Positions 4,675 to 58,534 of a stretch of DNA of 64,000 bases are shown in pieces. Location of the stretch: positions 4,850,501 to 4,914,500 of the forward strand of contig JARFIW010001215.1 in the NCBI GenBank assembly GCA_036346225.1, written 5' to 3'. A model generated the notes under the pieces. That model ran no database searches. It was not told the origin of the DNA and was given only the letters and a program-made list of their open reading frames with translations. The DNA comes from Platerodrilus igneus (taxonomy: Eukaryota > Arthropoda > Insecta > Coleoptera > Lycidae). The position numbers and the translations under genes are program-made. Positions within the stretch are counted from its first letter, which is position 1, and each line of letters opens with the position of its first letter.

Positions 4675-5705
4675 CTATCTCTCCCCTTCTATATCTATAC
4701 TTAACATCCCTATTATCTCACATACAATAAATTTATCATCCCTATTATCCTGACTCTTAAATATTACTTCTTCTTCAGTCCCTACACTTGTCTGTTTCTT
4801 ATTCATTATCATTTCCTTTTCTGCCGACAAACCAAACGATACTACTTTAAAATTCTTGATTTTTCTCTCTACAGAAAATCCTATGTACCTTCTAGAATTC
4901 TTGTGTAATGGAATCCACCAGAATGAATTCCTTAAATCTACTTTATTAAAAACAAACTTGCCACTTAATCTCGTCAAAAGCGTGTCCATGGATGGTGGAC
5001 AATGGAATTGCGGTTTGGTCCGTTGATTAATTTTTCGTGCATCCAAACATAAACGAATGCTATCATCCTTTTTCTTAACTACCACCAAGGGATTTATGAA
5101 ATGAGTGTTTGATACCTCTATTATGCCATCTTCCAACATTTTATTTAATTCTGCCTTCACCTGCTCGATATGCTGCTGTTGCTTCTACCCCACTAATTCT
5201 GCATGTTTTTGTACTAAAGCTTGAACCTCTACTCTCCTATCCTCTGGACATCTTATCGTGTTGATCTGTTTAACTTCATCATCCTCTACCTCTACTACAT
5301 TAATACTCAACCCCGTGTCATCCTCTGTGACTTCATAACTGCCCTTCCATGGCACTACCCTATCCTTAATCCTTATTACCTTCTGTTCCATATCTATCAA
5401 AACCCTAACTTCATCATACAGTCAACACCTAAAATGCTCTGAAACTTCAGTCCAGGTACAATTACAAACTCCTGTTCACAGCTTAAACCTCCTATATCTA
5501 TCCTAAGCACCACAACACTATTTACTACAGCAAACTTCTTTTTATTTGGAGCTACTAAATGGCTACGCTTTATAGGCATAATTCTATCACAAACCTTATC
5601 CCTAATTTTGCTGACGAATTCCTCCGATATTAAACTCGCCTCTGCCCCTGTATCAAGTAATACTTCTACATTATTCTCAAAAATTTCTATATTAATAATT
5701 GGCAA
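4675..5705 (-). pseudogene. Aspartic protease plus truncated reverse transcriptase, copy B
   Basis: Second copy of the protease-RT segment, broken into three frames (5705-5397, 5400-5185, 5160-4675) by one-base differences near 5400 and a two-base loss near 5166, at runs that are intact in copy A. Protease signature LLDTGAEASLI and the RT motifs up to FGLSAE are present, followed by the same Lys/Glu-rich tail. The polymerase YxDD motif, RNase H and integrase are absent. Confidence 0.72.
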
Positions 5706-45948: not shown

Positions 45949-47373
45949 TCATCTATTTTTAATAAAATTGTGCTTAAATTGTTCTAATCTACTATTAGTA
46001 ATAATGACTTTCATACATTGTGATTCACTGTCTTTTTCATCCGATTTTACATTCGTTACAGTTGAATTTTTATACAACCAGCGCATTTCATCTCCACCAG
46101 AAGGCACTCTTATTGTAATTCTTTTCCTGTTAGTAACATCTATAATAACATCTTCAAGTTTCTTGCGAAGCACATCTACTCCTCGAAGTGTCGTTGATGA
46201 TAGTGAAATACTGTCTTTGCTTGAAGCATCATCATTAGAAACTAAATCACATTTATTTCCAACAGTTATAATTTTATCTAAAAGCTGTTGCGAACCTGTC
46301 TTATTTGCTAGATTTTGTAATGTTAATAAAACATGATTTCGTTGGTGAATAATATCACTGTTTGATAAATCTTCAACGTGTATAATAACATCGGCTAACA
46401 TTGCATCTTCCAAAGTAACAATAAAACATTCGATTAAAGTTGTTGGTATATCAGATATAAAACCAACAGTATCAACATATAAAACTTCCAACCCTGACAG
46501 CAACTTACCAGCATGCATGGTTACATCTAAAGTGGCAAATAAATCATTTCTAGGGTGCAATGCATCATCACCAGTTAAGGCTTTTATTAATGATGTTTTA
46601 CCTGCGTTTGTGTATCCAACTACAGCAACAATAGGATATTCTTTAGTAAAACGACGTACTCGCAACACTTCCCGTTGCACCTGTAATTTCTTAAGAGAAT
46701 CTTTTATTTTTTGTTCTCGGTTTTGCAACATCATACGTCTAGCTTCATAATCGTCGCTGACAACAATGCTAAATTCATCTTTTCCTAAACACGATCTTAT
46801 ATATGGGAGCTCTGCTAGGGCCACCTGAAGTTTAGCATGTGTACTAATAGCATGTAGTTTTAAAATGTGCATTACAATCCTATATCTATCAAAAATTACA
46901 ACACCAAACTCTTTTTCTAGTTCTCGTAACTGCCCACCCTTTAAAGTAGAAGTGTTAATGAACACAGCAGTTATATTAGGATTGCTACGAGTTCGGCTCT
47001 TTAATCTTTCTAAATTACCTGATCCAAAAAATGTTTTCTTATTAAAACTTGTAAGGGATATTATCTCGGTATCAACAACTTTCCATGGAGCTAAAGTACG
47101 AATAAGAGCGATTGCCTCTTCAAGTCGTTGCTGGGGATTCGTATCTCGCACTTTGTTTACTCCCCATTTTACGAATGGATGAACTATAAAACAGTTGTGA
47201 ACTTGGGTCTGACCAAAATATCTTGAAGCAACAGCTTCGTATTCTTCATCAGGTTGCAGTAATTCTTCTGTTGCAAATTGACAATATGCATATCTCGAAA
47301 TAGAAAATTTTTTGTAGCTATTTACATACTTGGGTTTAATAATATATCGTATGTTTTTTAGTACAGTAAACAT
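45949..47373 (-). CDS. GTPBP6: HflX/GTPBP6-type GTP-binding protein, likely mitochondrial
   Basis: Intact 474-codon frame from ATG at 47373 to TGA at 45949-45951. The first about 35 residues are basic, hydroxyl-rich and free of acidic residues, fitting a mitochondrial presequence. Residues about 80-235 form the HflX N-terminal domain (KKTFFGSGN, VVIFDRYRIVMHI) with a following helical linker. The G domain starts at 249: P-loop GYTNAGKTS (253-261), LFATLD (278-283, switch I area), DTVGF (301-305, G3), NKCD (373-376, G4). HflX proteins split or recycle stalled ribosomes; animal GTPBP6 acts on the mitochondrial ribosome. Intronless here. The length fits the family and no inactivating change is seen. 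Best candidate host gene in the window; a processed retrocopy cannot be excluded, though no poly(A) remnant is visible downstream. Confidence 0.9.
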   Translation of the reverse strand: MFTVLKNIRYIIKPKYVNSYKKFSISRYAYCQFATEELLQPDEEYEAVASRYFGQTQVHNCFIVHPFVKWGVNKVRDTNPQQRLEEAIALIRTLAPWKVVDTEIISLTSFNKKTFFGSGNLERLKSRTRSNPNITAVFINTSTLKGGQLRELEKEFGVVIFDRYRIVMHILKLHAISTHAKLQVALAELPYIRSCLGKDEFSIVVSDDYEARRMMLQNREQKIKDSLKKLQVQREVLRVRRFTKEYPIVAVVGYTNAGKTSLIKALTGDDALHPRNDLFATLDVTMHAGKLLSGLEVLYVDTVGFISDIPTTLIECFIVTLEDAMLADVIIHVEDLSNSDIIHQRNHVLLTLQNLANKTGSQQLLDKIITVGNKCDLVSNDDASSKDSISLSSTTLRGVDVLRKKLEDVIIDVTNRKRITIRVPSGGDEMRWLYKNSTVTNVKSDEKDSESQCMKVIITNSRLEQFKHNFIKNR

Positions 47374-48016: not shown

Positions 48017-48117
48017 ATGTCTTCAGATTTGAAACTAAATCTCGAAAAACTTAATCTCATAGAAGAGTGGCCGAAGTGGAAGCGAAATCTAGAACTTCTG
48101 CTCCAATATTATGATAT
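48017..48117 (+). pseudogene. Copia gag, first 34 codons
   Basis: ATG at 48017 opens MSSDLKLNLEKLN and IEEWPKWKRNLELLLQYYDI, the usual copia gag start. The gypsy element interrupts it after the second base of codon 34; the same codon completes with the T at 54670 and the frame continues FDVVNGTF. The insertion is therefore exact apart from its ATAT duplication. Confidence 0.8.
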
Positions 48118-48563
48118 TGTAACGGGCTACTACTACCGCGTTTCTTTAATTTAAAACAAGTAATAATAATGGTCTTTATTACTCACTGTTCACAAGTCTA
48201 ATTAACAGTATATGCCTTATTTATAGATGTTTTCAGTCCAATAACAACACTAACACAACTATTTGTTTATACCCTTCTATTTATTTATGTATACTACAAG
48301 CTGCATGTACATTAGACACAGCATATCACATTTATGTATACTTCAAAAGCTCAAAACTGCTATTACTTTACAACGTTATAATTTATATACGACATTCTAG
48401 TATAGACTGACTCTTGCATTCATTAGCGGTCTTATATATACTCTGGATTACAAGGATGACTCATGCTCCCGTAATTTCTAGAAGAATTCTGGAATCCTTG
48501 AGAATACGCTGTGCCCACGAGCGTTTGTATGTTTGACGGGTTGCCTAATAGTGGATCGCAACA
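48118..48563 (-). repeat. Gypsy 3' LTR
   Basis: 446 bases; otherwise almost identical to the 5' LTR, which indicates a young insertion. It lacks the 80-base segment between direct GTCCA repeats. Confidence 0.9.
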
Positions 48564-49019
48564 CTGCCCCCTCTTTAAAACCGTTACGTCTCGTAACTGT
48601 AAATCCTTCTTGACGCCAATTCGATGACTGGTGACGGTATCGGCAGCTATCTCCTCTGGTGCATCCACCGCGTCGTTGGAAGTAACAGTCAACACTCTTT
48701 TCCTGGTCTTGGTAGGCAACCGGTTGATAACAACAAACAAGAACCTGGACGTTGGTTCCTGGAAAACTACTTCTAGCATATTTCGGACTATCCTCCAGTC
48801 TAAGCGATCCAGTCCACAGCCCAGCCTGGGCACCGCTAGTCTCGTTACTCCATTTTCCATCATCTGCGCCTTAAGATTTAGCAAAGCCTCCCATAGATGT
48901 CCATAACTAGGTCTCTGCCATGAAGAATTTTTGGTGACCAGATAGTAAACATAACGATTTTTATCTTGAAGTACCAAAGATTTTCCTACAGTTGGCTGCT
49001 GTTGTACTAATTCATCCAC
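48432..49019 (-). CDS. Open C-terminal part of the macro-domain protein and tail
   Basis: 195 codons open. Residue 1 is a GTG, so this is a continuation rather than a true start. Residues 1-98 are the C-terminal two thirds of the macro domain, with catalytic Lys at residue 30 and Asp at 71. The tail (99-195) is basic, then acidic, and reads through the polypurine tract into the 3' LTR before stopping at 48432. Ending in the LTR is common for the last gene of an LTR element. Confidence 0.75.
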   Translation of the reverse strand: MDELVQQQPTVGKSLVLQDKNRYVYYLVTKNSSWQRPSYGHLWEALLNLKAQMMENGVTRLAVPRLGCGLDRLDWRIVRNMLEVVFQEPTSRFLFVVINRLPTKTRKRVLTVTSNDAVDAPEEIAADTVTSHRIGVKKDLQLRDVTVLKRGQCCDPLLGNPSNIQTLVGTAYSQGFQNSSRNYGSMSHPCNPEYI

Positions 49020-49298
49020 ACATCCAAACTTTTCTTGAAAACAACAGCTATTCCCTTGACATTGCCAAATCTTGAGCTACGCAATGTGCAAGGAATACTC
49101 TTCTGGTGCTCTAAACAGATCTTGCTGTTTTTCAACAACAACGCCAAATCTCGCTTTAGCGGAACCACCATACGCCGCCATAAAGCTCTCAAAATCTACA
49201 TTTGGCTCATGATTAATAACTTGCCGAACACCATTATCATTATTCGAGTCTTCCTGGTTGTTGCCAGCGTAGGATGTTAAACGGTCAAAGTGTACCAC
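48725..49298 (-). pseudogene. TARG1/OARD1-like macro domain fused downstream of gypsy integrase
   Basis: After the usual pol terminus (VVHFDRLTSYAG, 49298-49263) and a about 35-residue acidic linker, a macro domain runs from about 49148 to 48725. In three frames it reads KQQDLFRAPEEYSL, LAHCVAQDLAMS, GIAVVFKK, then an open stretch YVYYLVTKNSS, YGHLWEALLNLKAQM, ENGVTRLAVPRLGCGLDRLDW. These follow the TARG1/OARD1 ADP-ribose hydrolase fold in order. The family's catalytic Lys (YYLVTK, codon 48930-48932) and Asp (GCGLD, codon 48807-48809) are both present. About three one-base indels in homopolymers split the frame. In the family this fold removes ADP-ribose from acidic residues; a role in the element is inference. 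Confidence 0.82.
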
Positions 49299-49335
49299 TT
49301 TCGGTTTACCACGAGGGATCTTCTGATCCGGTACA

Positions 49336-50984
49336 CTACATCATTAATCCTTTTAACACTTCGTACGGCCCTTCCCATTGTCTTTGTAGTTTTGGCGACA
49401 ATCCACGTTTTCTTTGTGGATTGTACAACCACACTAAATCTCCAGGTTGATAACCACCTTCTTGTGCTCTCGTGTCATATTGTGATTTCATTCGATCGCT
49501 TGCTGCCTGGATATTCTTTCGGACGTTTTCGTGAATACTATTTGATCTTTCACGAAGCTTACTAACGTAATCTTCACCTGCGATCTCTTCTCCAGGTTTA
49601 AATCCAAACCGAAGATCACATGGTAGCCGCAATTCACGTCCTAGCATTACGCAAGCGGGCGAGTACCCTGTGCTGTCATGTTCCGAAGATCGGTACGCCA
49701 GTAAGAACAAATGCAGATATTGGTCCCAGTCTCGTTGATGTTCAGAGACAACTTTGGCCAGGTACTTCCTAACGTCCTGTTCATTCTTTCAACCATTCCA
49801 TCCGATTGGGGATGAAGTGGCGTGTTTCTAGTTTTCCTGATTCCAAGATGCTTGCAGACGTTTTGAAACAACGCTGATTCGAAGTTCCGACCTTGATCGG
49901 AGTGTAATTCCAACGGAACTCCAAAGCGACAAAACAACTCCTCACTAGTACATCTGCAACCGTCTCGGCTTCTTGGTTAGGTATAGCATATGCCTCCGGC
50001 CATTTGGTAAAATAATCCATTGCAACCAAGATGTATTTATTCCTTTCTCTGATTCAGGAAACGGACCAGCTATATCAATGGCTACCCTCTCAAAAGGATT
50101 CCCACGTTATACTGTCTCATTGGGGCTTTCCGTTTTGTGACCGGGCCATTTGCAGAGGCACACAATTCACATTTCCGGCACCACTCCTTCACATCTTCTT
50201 TGCAGTTCACCCAATAGAATCTTTCTCTCACTCTTTCGAGAGTTCTTTTCACGCCAAAGTGCCCTCCGGAAATACCGTCGTGCAAGTGCTGCAACACTTC
50301 CGGCACTCTGCTTCTCGGCACTATCACTTGAAGTCTCTCAGTGCCATCTTCAAATTCCAGGCGTCGTTTCAAGATTCTATTTTCCATCATCAAGGAGTCC
50401 CACTGTGCCCAGTATGCCTTCAGGCTCCTACTTAAAATACTAATTTCTTCCCAAGCTGGCCGTTGTCCTCTATTTTTCCACTCAATAATACGTCCCAATT
50501 CGGCGTCATTCTCCTGGTCTTCTCGCATTCTTTCGGGTTGCCAAGTATCATCGGTTACCGTCATTCTATGGATGACACTTATTTTCTCTTCCATCTTGGA
50601 GCAATGATTGCAGTCCACCGGACAAGGTCTCCTTGATAGAGCGTCTGCATTCCGATGGCTAGTTCCTACACGATGTTCTGTATCAAAGTCATATTCCTGC
50701 AGTCGCTCTATCCACCTTGCCACTTGCCCTTCAGGATTTCGAAACTGCAGTAAACATTTCAGTGCAGCATGGTCTGTTCTCAACAGAAATTTACGGCCAT
50801 ATAAGTACTTATAAAAGTGCTCTACGGATTTGACGACTGCTAACAGCTCCCTTCTTGTCACACAATAGTTCCTTTCTGGCCGTGACAAGACCTTGCTGAA
50901 ATACCCAATAACTTTTTCTTGTCCGTCCTGCACTTGAGAAAGAACGCCTCCTATAGCTATGTTACTGGCATCGGTATCCAACAC
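49336..50984 (-). pseudogene. Gypsy RNase H and integrase
   Basis: RNase H: LDTDASNIAIGGVLSQ, REL near 50850, LRTDHAALKCLL, HRNADALSRRPC. Integrase: HFGVKRTLERVRERFYW and CRKCELCA (HHCC zinc domain, about 50240-50150), VAMDYFTKWPEAY (first Asp, about 50029), LHSDQGRNFES (second Asp, about 49907), NPLHPQSDGMVERMNRTLG-like segment (Glu, about 49830), then DLVWLYNPQRKRGLSPKLQR and WEGPYEVLKGL (49440-49345). Frames switch near 50085, 49930, 49710 and 49330. Confidence 0.88.
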
Positions 50985-51789
50985 AAATTTCCCTCCATCC
51001 GTGGATAACTCAAAATTGGTGCTGTAACTAGTAGCCGTTTCAGTTGTTCAAATGCTCTGTGGCAGTCGTCATTCCAATCATATTCTTGTCCATCTTCGGT
51101 TAATTTTGTTAACGGTTTGGCAATGTTCGCAAACCCAAGTATAAAACGTCGGTAATATGTGCACAATCCAAGAAAACTGCGTAGTTGGTGTATATCTGCT
51201 GGTGTAGGCCACTCTTGTACCGTTTTTATTTTGTCAGGATCAGCTCTTATTCCGGTCTCCGAAACGACATGTCCTAGGTATTTCACCTCTTTTCCAAACA
51301 GGTGACACTTCTTGAGGCTCAATGTAAGGTTTGCCCCTCGTAATCTTTGGAATATCTCCTCTAGGTTCTTAAGGTGTTCTTCAAAAGACCGCCCTAAGAC
51401 TATTACGTCGTCTAGGTACACCAGACAAGTCTTCCAAGACAGTCCACGCAGTATCGACTCCATCAATCGTTCAAAAGTAGCAGGGCATTGCATAATCCAA
51501 ATGGCATGACCTTGAACTGCCATAATCCAGTTCCAATTGTAAAGGCAGTCTTTTCTTTATCGTTTGGCTCCAAGTCTACCTGCCAGTATCCGCTTTTCAA
51601 GTCCAAGGTCGAAAACCATTTAGATCCGGATAGAGTATCCAAGGTGTCATCAATTCTGGGCAAAGGATAGCTGTCTTTCTTTGTCACGTTGTTAAGCCGC
51701 CGGTAGTCTACACAAAACCTTGTCGACCCGTCCTTTTTCTTGACAAGCACTACCGGGGATGCCCATGGACTATTCGAGAGTTCAATCAC
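50960..51789 (-). pseudogene. Gypsy reverse transcriptase
   Basis: [20 protein letters not shown] and [20 protein letters not shown] (51775-51660), [12 protein letters not shown] (first Asp), VMPFGLCNA, then, after a shift near 51480, [30 protein letters not shown] (about 51418-51375, catalytic YLDD) and KCHLFGKEVKYLGHVVSETG. Another shift near 50985 leads into RNase H. Each break is a one- or two-base indel; the motifs themselves are intact. Confidence 0.88.
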
Positions 51790-54038
51790 TCCTGTTCTTC
51801 CATATCGGTGATAATTTGCTCAGCTTCCTTACGTTTTGCCAAAGGAAGCCGCCTGGGGTGTTGTCTTATCGGTTGCGCATCTCCAGTATTGATCTTGTGT
51901 TGCACAACATTCGTCCTTCCTTTCTCACTATCATCCAGTGCAAACACACCTCGATATCGTCCGACCAGTTCTTTTACCTTGCCCAGTTGGTCGCCATTTA
52001 ATCCTTGACACGAGGGTATCAACATATCCAGCAATTTCTGTGAGCAACCGTTGGTTGGTTTATTTTTCGTGTCGTCCACACAACGTTTAATATGGCATAC
52101 TGGAATGCAACTTCCCACAATCGTGTCTTTCTTCAGGGTCACCGTATGTGGATTAATGTTCAGCACCCTTACTGGTACCATATTTTGAAACTTTACCAGC
52201 GTTCTTCCAATCAGTAATCCCTCCTGACCCATTCCTGATTCATTTGCTTCCATCATGCATACTTGTCCTTCTTGGAGCGTACCATCCGGGCGTCCCATTA
52301 CTATCATTTCCGCTTTCTCGGGTATTTTCATATCGCAAATCATTCGAACTTGCATCGTCTGGTTACTCCTACCTTGAAATGGAATCTCATCATCATCTAT
52401 CCGAAGCACATTTTCTTTCATGTTTACATGAAACCCATATTCTCCCATGAGGTCCATTCCCAAGATCACTTCTTCTGTAATTTCAGCTACCAACACTCGA
52501 TGATTAATTAATTTGTCCCCAATTGTCAACATAACGGCAGTCTCTCCGTGAGTACCAATCTTCTCACCACTTGCCGTTCGGAGACACACCGATACAGGTA
52601 ACACTTTTCCACGACCAACCAAATCTGGTTTCACAATAGTTCTTGTCGCTCCTGTATCCGCAAGTAATCGGACAACCCTACCATTAATTCTACCATCGAT
52701 ATAAATGCTGTCCAGACTTTCCACCGACGATGCAGCACGGATGATAATCTCCGGGGCACTACGCTGTGCTGCCGAAGTTCGCCCCCTTACATAGACCAGC
52801 TTTGGCACAACCGGTTGTTTCTTTGGTTGAGTACAGCGTCTCTGCATATGGCCAACTTCACCGCAGCTCCAGCATCGTAGACGCCATCTCCGCGGTCGTT
52901 GTCTTTTCAGCCTTTCAGCCTTTCGCTTTTCAAACACACGGTTTATTATTTCATCTATGCTGTTCTGCGATTGCTCAGGTTCTTCTAATGCAGACCGAAC
53001 TTTGTGACTCATCCTGTGTGACGTCTGCTTAGCTGCTTCAAATTCAAGCGCATGAGCCAGTGCGTCATCTAACATTTTTGGCCGTGCTAATCTTAGCGCT
53101 TGCTGTATTTCACTGTCTTTAATGCCATCCACAAATGTTTGAACAGCCAGTTGTTCGAGGAAACTATCTGGTGCCGTTGGGTATGCCCATCTAACTAATC
53201 TGGCGATATCGGCTTCGAATTCTTGCAGGCTTTCACTTGTCTTTTGCGAGCGGTTTCTAACTTGTGCGTGGTAAACCTGTTGAAGGTGAGCGCCTCCATA
53301 TCTCATCTCAAGCTTCGATGTTAAGAGGCCGTAATCATTCTGCTGGTGATCAGGAATCGTTTGTAAGATGTTAAGAGCTTCTCCCCGTAGGGCCACTATT
53401 AAAGAGATAGCCTTCTCTTTGTTGCACCAACCGTTGGCTATTGCTGCAGCTTCAAATTGTTTCAAATATGTGGGCCAAGGTGTTTTGCCATCAAATGTGG
53501 GTGGTTTCACTTTAAATTTAGACGGTATGGACTCGCTTCTTTCCATGGTTCTTATTTCTGGAATGTTCTCATTTACAACTTGATTTGCTATTTCAAGTGG
53601 CCGTGTTGTTAGTGAAATCACCTGTTCTTGCAGCCTCATCATATCTTCTTCCATTTTTACCAATTTACTGTCCAACTTTTGCTCAACTGTTTTTACCTGT
53701 TCAGTGACATCTTCTTTCAATGCAATGGAGCTTGCTATTAATCTTTGTTCTAACGTGGCCGTCTTTTCATTCAACTCTTCCATTTTCATCGCGTTTTCAC
53801 TAAACCGTTCTTCTATTTTCTTAGCATTTTCAGTTAACCTTTCGGTAAGGTTTGATTCCAGTTCAACTGACCTCACTAAATTTTCATTTAGTGTCACTTC
53901 TAGTTTAGCCGACCTCTCCTCCATTTTCTCAGCATTTTCACTAAACTTTTCCTCTAATTTCGTAGTATTTTCGCTTAACTTTTCCTCCATACCGGATTTA
54001 AAATCCTTAAGGAAATTCATTAAAGTCTCTGCCTCCAT
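51786..54038 (-). CDS. Gypsy gag-protease polyprotein, N-terminal part
   Basis: Open for 750 codons from ATG at 54038. Residues 15-145 are an imperfect heptad array ([20 protein letters not shown] and similar) forming a long coiled coil. 176-345 is the capsid-like gag core ([20 protein letters not shown], then [20 protein letters not shown]). A CCHC knuckle [14 protein letters not shown] is at 389-402, and the retropepsin signature [12 protein letters not shown] at 458-469 with [11 protein letters not shown] further on. The frame runs to the start of RT ([19 protein letters not shown]) and breaks near 51787, where RT continues in another frame. Gag packages element RNA; the protease matures the polyprotein. 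Confidence 0.9.
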
Positions 54039-54139
54039 CTTACTTTGGTTTCTTGTACAGGCATATACAAACTACTTAAATGTCTTTAGACCTGTGTTTT
54101 AAATTAATCACTATATACCCCACAAATGCCTGACACCAG

Positions 54140-54665
54140 TGTAACGGGCTACTACTACCGTGTTTCTTTAATTTAAAACAAGTAATAATAATGGTCTTTA
54201 TTACTCACTGTTCACAAGTATAATTAACAGTATATGCCTTATTTATAGATGTTTTCAGTCCACTTAACAATGAAGCACTATTACACTAATGAATTTACAA
54301 GCACTAATATCTTCTTAAACTAACTTCTTTACCCTAGGTCCAATAACAACACTAACACAACTATTTGTTTATACCCTTCTATTTATTTATGTATACTACA
54401 AGCTGCATGTACATTAGACACAGCATATCACATTTATGTATACTTCAAAAGCTCAGAACTGCTATTACTTTACAATGTTATAATTTATATACGACATTCT
54501 AGTATAGACTGACTCTTGCATTCATTAGCGGTCTTATATATACTCTGGATTACAAGGATGACTCATGCTCCCGTAATTTCTAGAAGAATTCTGGAATCCT
54601 TGAGAATACGCTGTGCCCCCGAGCGTTTGTATGTTTGACGGGTTGCCTAATAGTGGATCGCAACA
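54140..54665 (-). repeat. Gypsy 5' LTR
   Basis: 526 bases. Contains an 80-base segment (54262-54341) absent from the other LTR and bounded by GTCCA repeats. Confidence 0.9.
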
Positions 54666-55435
54666 ATATTTTTGATGTGGTCAACGGGACTTTTACTAAG
54701 CCGTTACCTCCTTCGCAACCATCGACGCCGGAAGTGCTCGAAAGGTACAGCAAGGAACAAAAGGAATGGACTAAGAAGGATACTCATGCGCAATTGATAC
54801 TTAACGCTAACGTTTCAAACTACGTATATAAACAAGTAGGACAAATTGCGTCCGCCCAAGAATTCTGGCGTAAATTATTAAGCATTTACGAACAAACATC
54901 TGGACAGCGTTTAGACAGATTAGCGGCTAAATTTGTTAGCGCATCCAAAAAGGACGCTGCTACTAATATAATGACGCATATGGCTACACTGCAGAGAGAA
55001 TTCCACGAATTCAAAGCCGAAACGGCTAAACAGTTCAAATGTGAATTACCAGATCAACTGTTGTTATTACGTATAGCGTCTACATTACCTCCTGAATATA
55101 ATAGCTTCAAACAAATTTGGGAGATGATTCTTGTTGCCGATCGAACATACGAGAAAATGGAGGAGCAACTCAGAGCAACCGAATCAAATATTATAGATTT
55201 ACATAACGGATCTGCTATATCGTTCGTAGCAAAACACCAGCAAACAACTGCAAAGAAGAAGTGGTCGAAAAAGTATAACGGGCCAAAAGCTCGTTGTAAA
55301 AATTGCGGGCGATGGGGATCACACACAATGAAAGATTGTTACGCCCCTAAAAAGGAGTTTGCTTCTGAATCAAAAGCACAAAATACCAATTCAAATTTTT
55401 TTTGTGCAGCCTTAGGAGCTACGTCTGATCATTAG
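54666..55435 (+). pseudogene. Copia gag, main part
   Basis: Continues gag through ANVSNYVYKQVGQIASAQEF, a UBN2-type gag helical region (roughly residues 70-200 of the whole) and a CCHC knuckle CKNCGRWGSHTMKDC at about 55294-55338. It ends at TAG 55433-55435, in the same frame as pol. Copia elements usually keep gag and pol in one frame, so this stop is probably a mutation. Confidence 0.85.
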
Positions 55436-56866
55436 AGATATCCCGAAACGAAGACGATTCGGCCAGAAACTTGGTATTTAGATCGCGGTGCAACTTTACA
55501 TATGACATCAAGAGCCGAGTGGTTTGCGACGTATGAACCATTTGCCGAACCACGTTCTATAGAAATAACGGACGGCAATACCATTGAAGCAATGGGCCAA
55601 GGTACATTAAATGTGAAAACGCAAATCAATGAAAAAGTGACTAAAACAATGTCTGCTTGGTATGTACCAAAATTAAAGTCAAATATTTTTTCACTCAGTC
55701 AATCACTTTTTAATGGCTATGAATGGCGCACAATTGGCGTAGGTGCAAAATGCTACATAGGCCGAAAATTGGTTCTAACAGCAACATTGATAGAAGAGTT
55801 ATTTGTTTTAAATCTAAAAGTTATAATACCGCAGAAACCAGCTAGAGTCCTTCTAGCAAGAAGTACAAGTAATTTACAATTGTATCACGAAAGACTTGGG
55901 CACCAAAACAAAGCACATGTTAGAAAAGTGTTAAAGTGCCACGGTATCACTATCACAACAGATACAAATGAATTCTGCAAAGGTGTTGCGCTTGGAAAGC
56001 AAACCAGAAAAACATTTCGACCGAGACAAAATAGAGCTAATACACCGGGCGAGTTAATATGCGCTGACGTGTGCGGGCCAATGTCAGAACCTTCATTAGG
56101 AGGATCGAGATATGTTTGCTACAAAGACGACTATACGAAATTTCGAAAAGTCTTTTTTCTTAAGTACAAGTCTCAAGTTTATGATACATTTGTCAATATA
56201 CTAGCTGAAGCAAAAGCGTCTGGACATAACGTTCAACAATTCAGAACTGATAACGGTGGCAAGTTCAATAACGAAAGAACGCGGCGTTTACTCAAACAAC
56301 ACGGTATTAAAATCAGTTTTACAATGCCGTATACTCCGGAACAAAACGGAGCAGCCGAACGCGAGAACAGAACATTGGTGGAAAGTGCTAGATCAATGCT
56401 CCAAGCCAAAAATTTACCAATAAAGTTGTGGACTGAGGCAGTGAATACTGCGGCCTATATCCTGAATCATACAGGGCAAACTTCAGTCGAGGGAAAATCA
56501 CCGTATGAACGTTGGTATAGACGTCCATCCCCAGGAGTAAGTCACTTGCGAATTTTTGATTCCACGTGCTATGTACACGTTCCAAAACAAAAGCGGTAGA
56601 AATTTGACGCTAAAGAGCAAGAAGGCATCCTGGTAGGATACGAGGGTGAAAAAGATGGCTATCGGGTGTACATCAAAAATAAAAAATCAGTACTGCGTAG
56701 GTGCAATATTCGTTTTGCTCCAGAAATACCTGAAACAATAAACAAATCAGAAGAAATCTTAACTGAAATTGCAGAGCCTAATGAAGTTGGAGAGCTGATG
56801 TCTGTTCCAATACAGAATTTAGTTTTGGTTACAAACGATGACACTTCGGAAAACGAATCCTGTTAA
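55436..56866 (+). pseudogene. Copia protease and integrase
   Basis: Protease active site reads WYLDRGATLHMTS at about 55472-55510; the usual DSG is DRG. Integrase follows: YHERLGHQNKAHV (zinc His pair), FCKGVALGK (one of two Cys changed), ICADVCGPM (first Asp), FRTDNGGKF (second Asp) and PEQNGAAERENRT (Glu, about 56337-56375). Stops at 56597-56599 (TAG) and 56864-56866 (TAA). Frame kept throughout. Confidence 0.85.
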
Positions 56867-58534
56867 TATGAATTAGTCGAGTCTGAAACAGAAGATTGCG
56901 TAAAAGACACGCAAACGACTTTAACAGAAGTTCAAAGTAGTCGTTTTAGACGTGAAATACATAAACCTGCTTGGTTGAGAGGCTACATAATGATTGCTAC
57001 TACCACCGAAACTGAAAATCCAAAGTCGTATGCAGAGGCGATGACTATGTCAGATAGAGGAAAATAGAAAGATGCAATGGACAATGAAATAGCATCGCTA
57101 ACTGAAAATGAGGTCTGGAAATTAGTGAACCTACCAGCTAATCATAAAGTTATTAATAACAGGTAGGTGCTAAGAATAAAACAGAAAGCTGACGGCTCGA
57201 TCGATCGTTATAAAGCGAAGTTGGTGGCTAAAGGCTATTCACAACGATACGGAATTGATTACGATGAAACATTCAGTCCAGTTGCCAGATATGGAACTGT
57301 GCGGACAGTATTAAGCATCGCAGCTAATGAACGATTGAAACTGCGCCAGTCCGACGTTACAACAGCTTTCCTGTATGGCAAACTAACCTAAGAAATATAT
57401 ATGAAATAACCTGAAGGCTATGATGACGTCTCTGGACGGGTATTAAAATTAGAAAGAAGTCTTTATGGGCTAAAACAGTCACCTTGACGTTGGAATCACG
57501 AATTTGTAGATTTCATGAAGAAACACGGACTTGAGCAATCATCTGCAGATCCATGCTTGTTTAAGAGGGAAAGTGAAGGTACGAAACTCATTGTTGTCAT
57601 CTATGTCGATGATGGATTAATAGCTGGAACATCCGACAGTGTGATAAATAAACTCCTGGATGCTCTACAAATTCGCTACAAAATTACAAAAGGATCTTTG
57701 GATAGTTTTCTCGGGATGCAAATTGATATTCGAAGTGATGGATCAATTCGATTGCATCAAACTAATTACACTCAACAAATATTGAATCGTTTTCAAATGT
57801 CAGAAACACACCCAGTAAAGACACCTGTTACAAAAGAAGTAACAGGTACAGACGAGCCAGCTGAAAATGTGCCATACCGAGAAGCCGTAGGATGCCTGAT
57901 GTACTTGATAACTGCAACGCGTCCAGACTTAGCATATGCTATAAGCAAAGTTTCAGAAAATTTGGAGAAACCAACAAATGCTAACTGGAATAGTGTTAAG
58001 CGTATCTTTCGCTATCTACGAGGAACGTTTGATTACGGCATTGCTTATCAGGCACAATACAAGACTGGACAACTGGAAGCCTATAGAGATGCAGACTTTG
58101 CTGGCTGTGAAAAAACAGGACGTTCAAGGACGGGACTAATTTGTTTATATAGCGGAGGCGCAATCACTTGGGCTAGTAAGAAACCACAAATGGTTGTAAC
58201 CTCAACAATCGAATCAGAGTTAACAGCCGCAAGCGAATGTGCTAAAGAAATAGTCTGGTTACGACGTATGTTACGAGAAATCAGTAGCGAAATAAGAACC
58301 CCACTCCTAAAAATCGATAATCAGCCAACGATTAACATAATCAAGGGCGATGAGTATCGGGCTAGGACAAGACATATTGGCGTGCGACGGTTTTATGTGC
58401 GGGAACTATATCAAATGGAAAAATTAACAATTGAGCATATACCAACTAAAATTCAACTCGCCGATCCTATGACGAAAGCTTTGGCATGTGGCCCCATTGA
58501 ACTTCATCGTTCAGCAATGGGACTTGTTAATTAG
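56867..58534 (+). pseudogene. Copia reverse transcriptase and RNase H
   Basis: Same frame as gag. WKLVNLPANHKVINNR and LVAKGYSQRYGIDYDETFSP (RT entry, 57110-57285), DVTTAFLYG (first Asp), LERSLYGLKQSP, VVIYVDDGLIAG (57593-57628, catalytic YVDD), then RNase H with AYRDADFAGCEKTGRS (58079-58126), STIESELTA and GVRRFYVRELY. The final stop is at 58532-58534, followed by the polypurine tract. Stops at 57065, 57164, 57389, 57407 and 57485; the last 350 codons are clean. Confidence 0.88.

What the first reader, a model, noticed from the sequence alone, without database searches (positions are those of the whole stretch)
48432..49298. Gypsy retrotransposon with a TARG1/OARD1-like macro domain in the env position
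Seen: between the pol terminus and the polypurine tract, inside LTRs with a clean ATAT target duplication, lies a macro domain with the ordered motifs of the TARG1/OARD1 family. Both expected catalytic residues are present (Lys in YYLVTK, Asp in GCGLD). Known: this family reverses ADP-ribosylation of acidic residues and is related to macro domains that some RNA viruses use against host PARP defences. Inference: the element captured a host ADP-ribose hydrolase gene and may use it to counter PARP-based silencing or DNA-damage signalling at integration. I am not aware of a standard gypsy lineage defined by this domain. This is the strongest candidate for an undescribed system here.
Basis: partly seen in the sequence, partly recalled or inferred. 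Interest (0 to 1): 0.92.

Follow-up and report, generated by a model that had tools for sequence, protein, structure and literature searches.

The report
Gypsy retrotransposons carrying a TARG1-like macrodomain
A lineage of insect jumping genes has built a captured host enzyme that removes ADP-ribose marks, often with a zinc finger, onto the end of its integrase polyprotein, and selection has kept it there, which suggests that these elements must fight or exploit ADP-ribosylation to move.

Summary
The element (48118-54665, minus strand) has two LTRs and an ATAT duplication, and sits in a copia gag gene whose frame closes when the flanks are joined. A TARG1/OARD1-type macrodomain lies between integrase and the polypurine tract (AF2 model vs human TARG1: rmsd 0.7 A, TMt 0.97).

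It is not a separate gene in the env position. In relatives it is the in-frame C-terminus of Pol, after integrase.

It is not a one-off capture. It occurs in 24 of 121 Pol proteins examined; the 20 placed in a tree share one clade. It is in 20 of 20 sampled copies of this family, under purifying selection (pN/pS 0.23-0.27). Host-type OARD1 exons of the same genome are its sister group. Catalytic Lys and Asp are both kept in 20 of 23 elements.

This copy's frame breaks look like homopolymer assembly errors.

Best reading: one capture of host OARD1, kept as an ADP-ribosyl hydrolase acting with integrase; the substrate is inferred. My searches found no published Ty3/gypsy lineage like it.

The parts
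48118..48563 (-). 3' LTR (446 bases)
   Evidence: 441 of 446 aligned bases identical to the 5' LTR; TG...CA ends
54140..54665 (-). 5' LTR (526 bases; 80 bases absent from the 3' LTR)
48114..48117 (.). target site duplication ATAT (left copy)
   Evidence: joining the flanks restores the copia gag frame
54666..54669 (.). target site duplication ATAT (right copy)
54115..54139 (-). putative primer binding site stretch CTGGTGTCAGGC... next to the 5' LTR (tRNA not identified)
   Evidence: position only
51786..54038 (-). Gag with zinc knuckle and aspartic protease, start of Pol (750-aa open frame)
50957..51789 (-). reverse transcriptase (two open pieces)
   Evidence: RVT_1
50082..50984 (-). RNase H and integrase H2C2 zinc-binding domain
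49336..50081 (-). integrase core and C-terminal part, in pieces
   Evidence: only sub-threshold SH3-type hits in 49336-49710; the core stretch was not scanned here, its place is taken from relatives P0019-P0021
48733..49184 (-). TARG1/OARD1-type macrodomain, in three frames in this copy; catalytic Lys and Asp inside the open piece 48432-49019
   Evidence: bounds read from the alignments, approximate
48631..48687 (-). CCCH zinc finger (from its first Cys to its His), in a different frame from the macro core in this copy
   Evidence: sequence, frame; in frame with macro in P0001 and P0019-P0022 and in copies L031-L060
48564..48576 (-). polypurine tract

Best explanation
This is one copy of a high-copy Ty3/gypsy-type LTR retrotransposon from a distinct insect lineage. 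An ancestor of the lineage captured the host gene OARD1 (TARG1), most simply once and from spliced mRNA, and fused it in frame behind integrase; a CCCH zinc finger follows in most members. Shown: anatomy, fold, catalytic residues, one clade, purifying selection, closeness to host OARD1. Inferred: the domain is an active ADP-ribosyl hydrolase. Carried by or cut from Pol, it removes ADP-ribose that host PARP-type enzymes place on element nucleic acid ends (cDNA or RNA), on Gag/Pol proteins, or on chromatin at the insertion site. The zinc finger is inferred to hold it on nucleic acid. The net effect would be relief from PARP-dependent silencing or from a block to integration.
For: Fold: the AF2 model of a natural copy's macro-ZF stretch has pLDDT 91-98 in blocks over residues 11-160; best PDB match is TARG1 with ADP-ribose, rmsd 0.7 A, TMt 0.97, 45% identity. 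Lineage: 24 of 121 Pol proteins carry it; all 20 macro-bearing tips of a 111-protein Pol tree fall in one 23-tip clade with support 1.0, midpoint-rooted. Macro and Pol distances correlate (r 0.65, 0 of 2000 permutations as high, 19 shared tips). Selection: pN/pS of the macro 0.23 in 20 copies chosen by integrase, 0.25 and 0.27 in two sets of 30; 1.14 and 1.35 just after the zinc finger in the two sets that gave a value. Catalysis: Lys 21 of 23, Asp 21 of 23, both 20 of 23 (one truncated row set aside). Origin: two host-type OARD1 exons with AG/GT borders in the same genome group with P0004/P0005 (99), and this group is sister to the element clade (94). Biology from papers (passages): TARG1 removes ADP-ribose from RNA ends and from phosphates at DNA breaks (PMC6582358); PARP is linked to silencing of Copia and Gypsy in Drosophila (PMC13228198).
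Against: No activity, expression or mobility data. Sister elements P0031 and P0033 lost the Asp (P0031 also the Lys) and P0136 has Lys to Arg, yet their domain stays open, so hydrolysis is not needed in every member. Intact CCCH is found in only 15 of 24 (two of the other nine are truncated). Three clade members show no macro (P0039, P0040, P0041). The element macro clade has only moderate support (76, 73), on a root that I chose; a second capture is not excluded. The macro evolves faster than RT or the IN core (mean identity 0.50 against 0.80 and 0.79 in 17 proteins). Some frame controls are mixed: in L001-L030 frame +1 of the macro gives 0.57. pN/pS among copies also reflects selection on their shared ancestors.
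Confidence: 0.6

Rival explanations
1. Reader, not eraser: the macrodomain at the integrase C-terminus binds ADP-ribosylated chromatin or DNA ends and steers integration, as chromodomains are recalled to do with methylated histones in chromoviruses.
For: Its position directly behind integrase is the recalled place of the chromodomain in chromoviruses. In P0031, P0033 and P0136 a catalytic residue is changed while the domain stays open.
Against: Catalytic Lys and Asp are both kept in 20 of 23 elements; a pure reader need not keep them.
Confidence: 0.25
2. Cytosolic counter-defence protein: the domain is released from Pol and acts like RNA-virus macrodomains on host antiviral ADP-ribosylation rather than at integration.
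For: TARG1-like folds recur in arthropod-associated viruses: Kadipiro virus VP8 (41% identity), thrips virga-like and iridescent viruses. The IN-macro linker is poorly conserved (mean identity 0.32).
Against: No protease site was looked for with a tool or identified; fusion behind integrase fits a nuclear role equally well.
Confidence: 0.3
3. Passenger: a one-off or neutral captured exon with no use to the element.
For: This copy's frame is broken at several places, and only 6 of 20 sampled copies show macro and finger in one frame without a stop as assembled.
Against: One clade, macro present in 20 of 20 sampled copies, pN/pS 0.23-0.27, breaks mostly in homopolymer runs.
Confidence: 0.03
4. 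Host gene misread: a host OARD1 gene or pseudogene merely lies beside a gypsy element, or the join is an assembly chimera.
For: Host-type OARD1 exons exist in this genome.
Against: The macro is intron-free and inside the LTRs here, at 150 or more listed places in each of two genome searches, and in unbroken Pol frames of elements from other sources.
Confidence: 0.01

Closest known systems
TARG1/OARD1 (C6orf130) macrodomain, ALC1-like class (class name recalled)
   Same: Fold (rmsd 0.7 A, TMt 0.97), 45% identity, catalytic Lys and Asp; element clade is sister to host OARD1-type exons
   Different: Fused behind integrase in a retrotransposon polyprotein, intron-free, in most members with a CCCH finger
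Fish epsilon-like endogenous retroviruses with macro-domain genes (Basta et al. 2009, known to me only through a passage of PMC4977317; the paper itself is not held)
   Same: LTR retroelements that carry a macro domain
   Different: Vertebrate retroviruses, described there as additional open reading frames; here Ty3/gypsy-type in insects, fused to integrase. Which macro class the fish genes belong to was not tested
Orchid Ty3/gypsy elements with an AlkB m6A RNA demethylase (PMC9289625; abstract and passages)
   Same: A gypsy lineage that fixed a captured host enzyme removing a nucleic-acid mark; shown active in vitro there
   Different: Other enzyme and other mark; an additional ORF rather than the Pol C-terminus; plants
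Macrodomains of arthropod-associated viruses (Kadipiro virus VP8, thrips virga-like viruses, iridescent viruses)
   Same: TARG1-like fold, up to 41% identity
   Different: RNA or large DNA viruses; not integrase-linked as far as the listing shows
Chromoviruses (gypsy elements with a C-terminal integrase chromodomain; recalled)
   Same: Accessory domain at the integrase C-terminus
   Different: Macro-CCCH instead of a chromodomain; no chromodomain hit

Membership tests
TARG1/OARD1-type macrodomain | macro fold closest to TARG1 | tested here: met
   first 8 PDB matches are all C6orf130/TARG1
TARG1/OARD1-type macrodomain | catalytic Lys and Asp | tested here: met
   window: both present; 20 of 23 elements have both; 3 do not
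TARG1/OARD1-type macrodomain | ADP-ribosyl hydrolase activity | not testable with these tools
   needs biochemistry
Ty3/gypsy-type LTR retrotransposon | LTRs, target duplication, polypurine tract, primer site | tested here: met
   primer tRNA not identified
Ty3/gypsy-type LTR retrotransposon | PR-RT-RNaseH-IN order | tested here: met
Ty3/gypsy-type LTR retrotransposon | named clade (for example Mdg1/412) | not tested
   relatives are labelled 'transposon 412' or 'K02A2.6-like' by sources; no reference elements were placed in the tree
Errantivirus (gypsy with env) | env gene between pol and 3' LTR | tested here: not met
   the space is filled by the Pol C-terminus: macro, zinc finger, polypurine tract
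Chromovirus | chromodomain at integrase C-terminus | tested here: not met
   no chromodomain among Pfam hits of P0019-P0022
Fish retroviruses with macro-domain genes | shared ancestry of the macro gene | not tested
   source paper not held

The most novel reading that the evidence does not exclude
An insect retrotransposon lineage carries its own ADP-ribose eraser built onto integrase. It strips PARP-type marks from element cDNA ends, RNA or chromatin during integration. That would reveal ADP-ribosylation as a real barrier to retrotransposition in insects and an old arms race fought with a captured host enzyme.
Probability: 0.4. Interest if true: 0.87.

Novelty: new variant of a known kind. 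Interest (0 to 1): 0.7.

Why it matters
Accessory domains fixed in a retrotransposon lineage point to the host process that limits it. PARP has been linked to Copia and Gypsy silencing in Drosophila (passage in PMC13228198), and SIRT6 mono-ADP-ribosylation of KAP1 to L1 silencing (passage in PMC4695847). An element that keeps a TARG1-type domain under purifying selection turns 'does ADP-ribosylation restrict retrotransposons?' into a testable biochemical question. It also shows, with host-type exons and captured copies side by side in one genome, how a host repair enzyme becomes part of a transposon.

Tried and rejected
Rejected: one-off exon capture, host gene beside the element, env-like separate gene (see rivals). 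Rejected: a shared biological frameshift. The first genome search seemed to show about 150 copies sharing this copy's frame change after VFQ, but that list was ranked by likeness to the shifted frame. A search with a relative's in-frame protein listed 150 places that match in frame, about nine in ten without a stop. Breaks vary from copy to copy, sit in homopolymers and occur without substitutions.

Led nowhere: viral contig scan with P0002 (no match). ARAGORN on 40000-64000 of the window (no tRNA). A blastn of the LTRs printed no alignment and was replaced by a global alignment. Paper searches with macro or OARD1 terms showed no Ty3/gypsy macro element in their listings; three later searches failed and one met the cap.

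Caveats on counts: one search printed 4 copies as 'no macro' only because the Lys codon held an alignment gap; Asp and zinc-finger residues were read in all 20. L001 is the window's own copy, so it is counted twice; L076 overlaps the copy of L018 and was dropped. Genome counts are lower bounds: 150 scored of 16352, 11964, 20535 and 7393 candidates. The 121 Pol proteins are the nearest listed relatives of a macro-bearing query plus four earlier hits, not a random sample.

Full report
WHAT IS THERE. The element lies on the minus strand at 48118-54665. Its LTRs (446 and 526 bases) differ by 5 substitutions in 446 aligned bases and one 80-base gap. It is flanked by ATAT. When the two flanks are joined with one ATAT, a copia gag frame reads through the site (...LLLQYYDIFDVVNGT...). 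ORFs to the right match copia gag, integrase and RT models. So the borders are exact: this is a gypsy insertion in a copia element. Inside are Gag with zinc knuckle and protease (51786-54038), RT, RNase H and integrase pieces. A macrodomain (about 48733-49184), a CCCH zinc finger (48631-48687), and a polypurine tract abutting the 3' LTR follow.

THE MACRODOMAIN IS REAL. The 195-aa open piece hits OARD1/TARG1 chains at E 2e-20 over 88 residues, including YYLVTK and GCGLD. Pfam's Macro model gives only 18.2 bits, below its cut-off. An AF2 model of the macro-CCCH stretch of a natural copy (L034, 37-row alignment A2) has mean pLDDT 83, with block means of 91-98 over residues 11-160. Its best eight PDB matches are all human TARG1/C6orf130, the first (4j5s, with ADP-ribose) at rmsd 0.7 A, TMt 0.97, 45% identity. 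DarG macrodomains come next. The finger region has block means of 72-84, and the stretch after it is low-confidence (41-58).

IT BELONGS TO POL, NOT ENV. A protein search with the open macro piece, restricted to long proteins, returned four polyproteins of 1132-1377 aa among 527 candidates. Three run PR-RT-RNaseH-IN-macro in one frame and the fourth IN-macro. The domain begins about 45-50 residues after the integrase C-terminal motif and is followed by a CCCH finger (PF00642 above its cut-off in P0019, P0020 and P0022, below it in P0021). In P0001 and P0019-P0021 the frame runs on to a motif like LRRGQC, which looks like the polypurine tract read as protein (inference from the sequence).

IT MARKS A CLADE. 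A whole-Pol search with P0021 gave 3663 hits among 7974 scored candidates, of which 120 were listed. With HMMs built from the first hits, 24 of the 121 Pol proteins P0019-P0139 carry the macro; the other 97 had no match below E 1. In a midpoint-rooted Pol tree of 111 of these 121 (10 left out for coverage, 4 of them macro-bearing), all 20 macro-bearing tips fall in one clade of 23 with support 1.0. Three members show none. P0039 and P0041 stop just after integrase, whether truncated is unknown; P0040 lacks the macro but seems to keep a remnant of the finger and the polypurine motif. Macro and Pol tree distances correlate (19 tips, r 0.65, 0 of 2000 permutations as high), though the two trees are not identical: P0031/P0033 join P0019/P0020 in the macro trees but not in the Pol tree. 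Named sources are beetles for P0042 and P0089 (Callosobruchus maculatus) and for P0002 (Aquatica leii; macro part only seen). Labels such as Erysiphe pulchra (P0022, P0034) and Klebsiella pneumoniae (P0026) are probably contamination (inference).

COPIES IN THIS GENOME. The assembly has 2.71 Gb. Searches list 150-154 matches each, the best-scored of 16352 (window macro piece), 11964 (P0001) and 20535 (integrase piece) candidates: lower bounds on a very large family. Many matches lie in open frames of several hundred to over 1400 aa, so long unbroken frames through this region exist. To avoid choosing copies by their macro I took every seventh place (ranks 3 to 136) of the 150 ranked by the integrase piece: 20 copies. 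They are the copies nearest to the window's, not a sample of all. All 20 hold the macro and the finger. The Asp is read in 20, the Lys in 15, with an alignment gap at the Lys codon in 4 and Asn in 1. In 6 of 20 macro and finger stand in one frame without a stop as assembled; 3 have a nonsense codon.

SELECTION. Uncorrected pN/pS of the macro is 0.23 in these 20 (frames +1 and +2: 1.24, 0.98), and 0.27 (0.57, 1.28) and 0.25 (1.11, 0.86) in two sets of 30 chosen by macro likeness (loci). In the second set the macro N-terminal part, outside the query, gives 0.31, integrase 0.15, finger 0.20, and the stretch after the finger 1.14. Results that fit less well: in the first set the macro N-terminal part gives 0.53 against 0.34 in frame +1, on very few changes (pS 0.017), and the finger gives 0.92 on pS 0.003; after the finger pS is 0. 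The linker gives 0.40-0.56, and in two of three sets its frame +1 is lower than its own frame. Selection on the macro as a whole is clear, its parts less so.

BROKEN FRAMES ARE PROBABLY ASSEMBLY ERRORS. Against the natural copy L034, 240 of 279 single-base indels in 78 loci lie in runs of three or more bases; 240 of 279 are deletions. Such runs make up 16% of L034's compared bases; with the window and L076 included the counts are 252 of 291 (in which the window's copy also appears as L001). L004 has 0 substitutions and 5 indels, L071 0 and 4. Natural slippage also favours runs, so this is strong but not proof. No mend was attempted.

ORIGIN. Searching the genome with P0005 ranked two places first that lack the element's surroundings: both show an OARD1-type exon with AG before and GT after it, and neither matched L034 in blastn. 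They group with P0004/P0005, proteins of unnamed source (99), and this group is sister to all element macros (94; element clade itself 73). A first tree without them gave the element clade 76 and the same sister group (95). Both trees are rooted on P0008/P0009/P0016 by my choice. The element macro is continuous across the borders of the host exon. One capture, from spliced RNA, is the simplest reading (inference).

FUNCTION. Lys and Asp are each kept in 21 of 23 elements, both in 20. That favours an enzyme over a pure reader. Against universality: P0031 and P0033 (sister elements) lost the Asp, P0031 and P0136 the Lys. Intact CCCH is found in 15 of 24; a group of six (P0028, P0032, P0034, P0035, P0036, P0038) has the macro without it, so macro and finger are separable. 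Mean pairwise identity in 17 longer proteins is 0.50 in the macro, 0.80 in RT, 0.79 in the IN core and 0.32 in the linker: constrained, yet faster than the core enzymes, as expected of a part facing the host (inference). Passages read: TARG1 reverses ADP-ribosylation of RNA ends and of phosphates at DNA breaks (PMC6582358); PARP recruitment and silencing of Copia and Gypsy (PMC13228198, citing Tulin 2002 and Kotova 2011, not read); SIRT6 and L1 (PMC4695847); ZAP, a CCCH protein of the PARP family, restricts retrotransposons (PMC4982230). A TARG1-like domain beside integrase is well placed to clear ADP-ribose from cDNA ends or nearby chromatin, but that step is inferred.

NOVELTY. Searches listed no Ty3/gypsy macro element; the library lacks most subscription journals and three later searches failed. 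The survey of NAD/ADP-ribose systems in viruses (PMC9503650, term search of its text) has no occurrence of 'transpos', 'retroelement', 'Metavir' or 'TARG1'. Fish retroviruses with macro-domain genes are on record (passage in PMC4977317), and so is capture of a host enzyme by gypsy elements (PMC9289625, abstract and passages). Hence a new variant of a known kind.

Noticed in passing
54666-58534 and left of 48118: The gypsy insertion splits the gag of a copia element; the rest of the copia (gag, integrase, RVT_2 ORFs) lies to the right, itself in pieces.
   Followed up: partly
45949-47373: Intact 474-aa ORF with MMR_HSR1 and GTP-bdg_N domains (HflX/GTPBP6-like by recall), unbroken although the repeat beside it is full of single-base indels, as if unique sequence were polished better.
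   Followed up: partly
P0022 (database protein): Integrase-macro-CCCH runs straight into a Gag in one frame with no LTR between; could be a circular form, a tandem copy or a mis-assembly.
   Followed up: no
P0031, P0033: Sister elements keep an open macrodomain but lost catalytic residues: a possible switch from eraser to reader inside the lineage.
   Followed up: partly
P0028, P0032, P0034, P0035, P0036, P0038: Group of elements with the macro but no intact CCCH finger.
   Followed up: partly
L081 (C739:292500-293900) and L082 (C549:4624800-4626200): Two host-type OARD1 exons with splice-like borders: the host gene may be duplicated.
   Followed up: partly
54140-54665 against 48118-48563: An 80-base stretch is present in the 5' LTR and missing from the 3' LTR.
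   Followed up: no
94-1197 and 4675-5160: Two ORFs with a long nearly identical stretch, RT-like by eye; probably copies of another retroelement.
   Followed up: no
53775-53984: Repeats at 33-base spacing in the gag N-terminus; coiled-coil-like by eye.
   Followed up: no
A0A8E0KJF2: Kadipiro virus VP8 (seadornavirus) contains a TARG1-like macrodomain, 41% identical to the element's over the aligned part.
   Followed up: no
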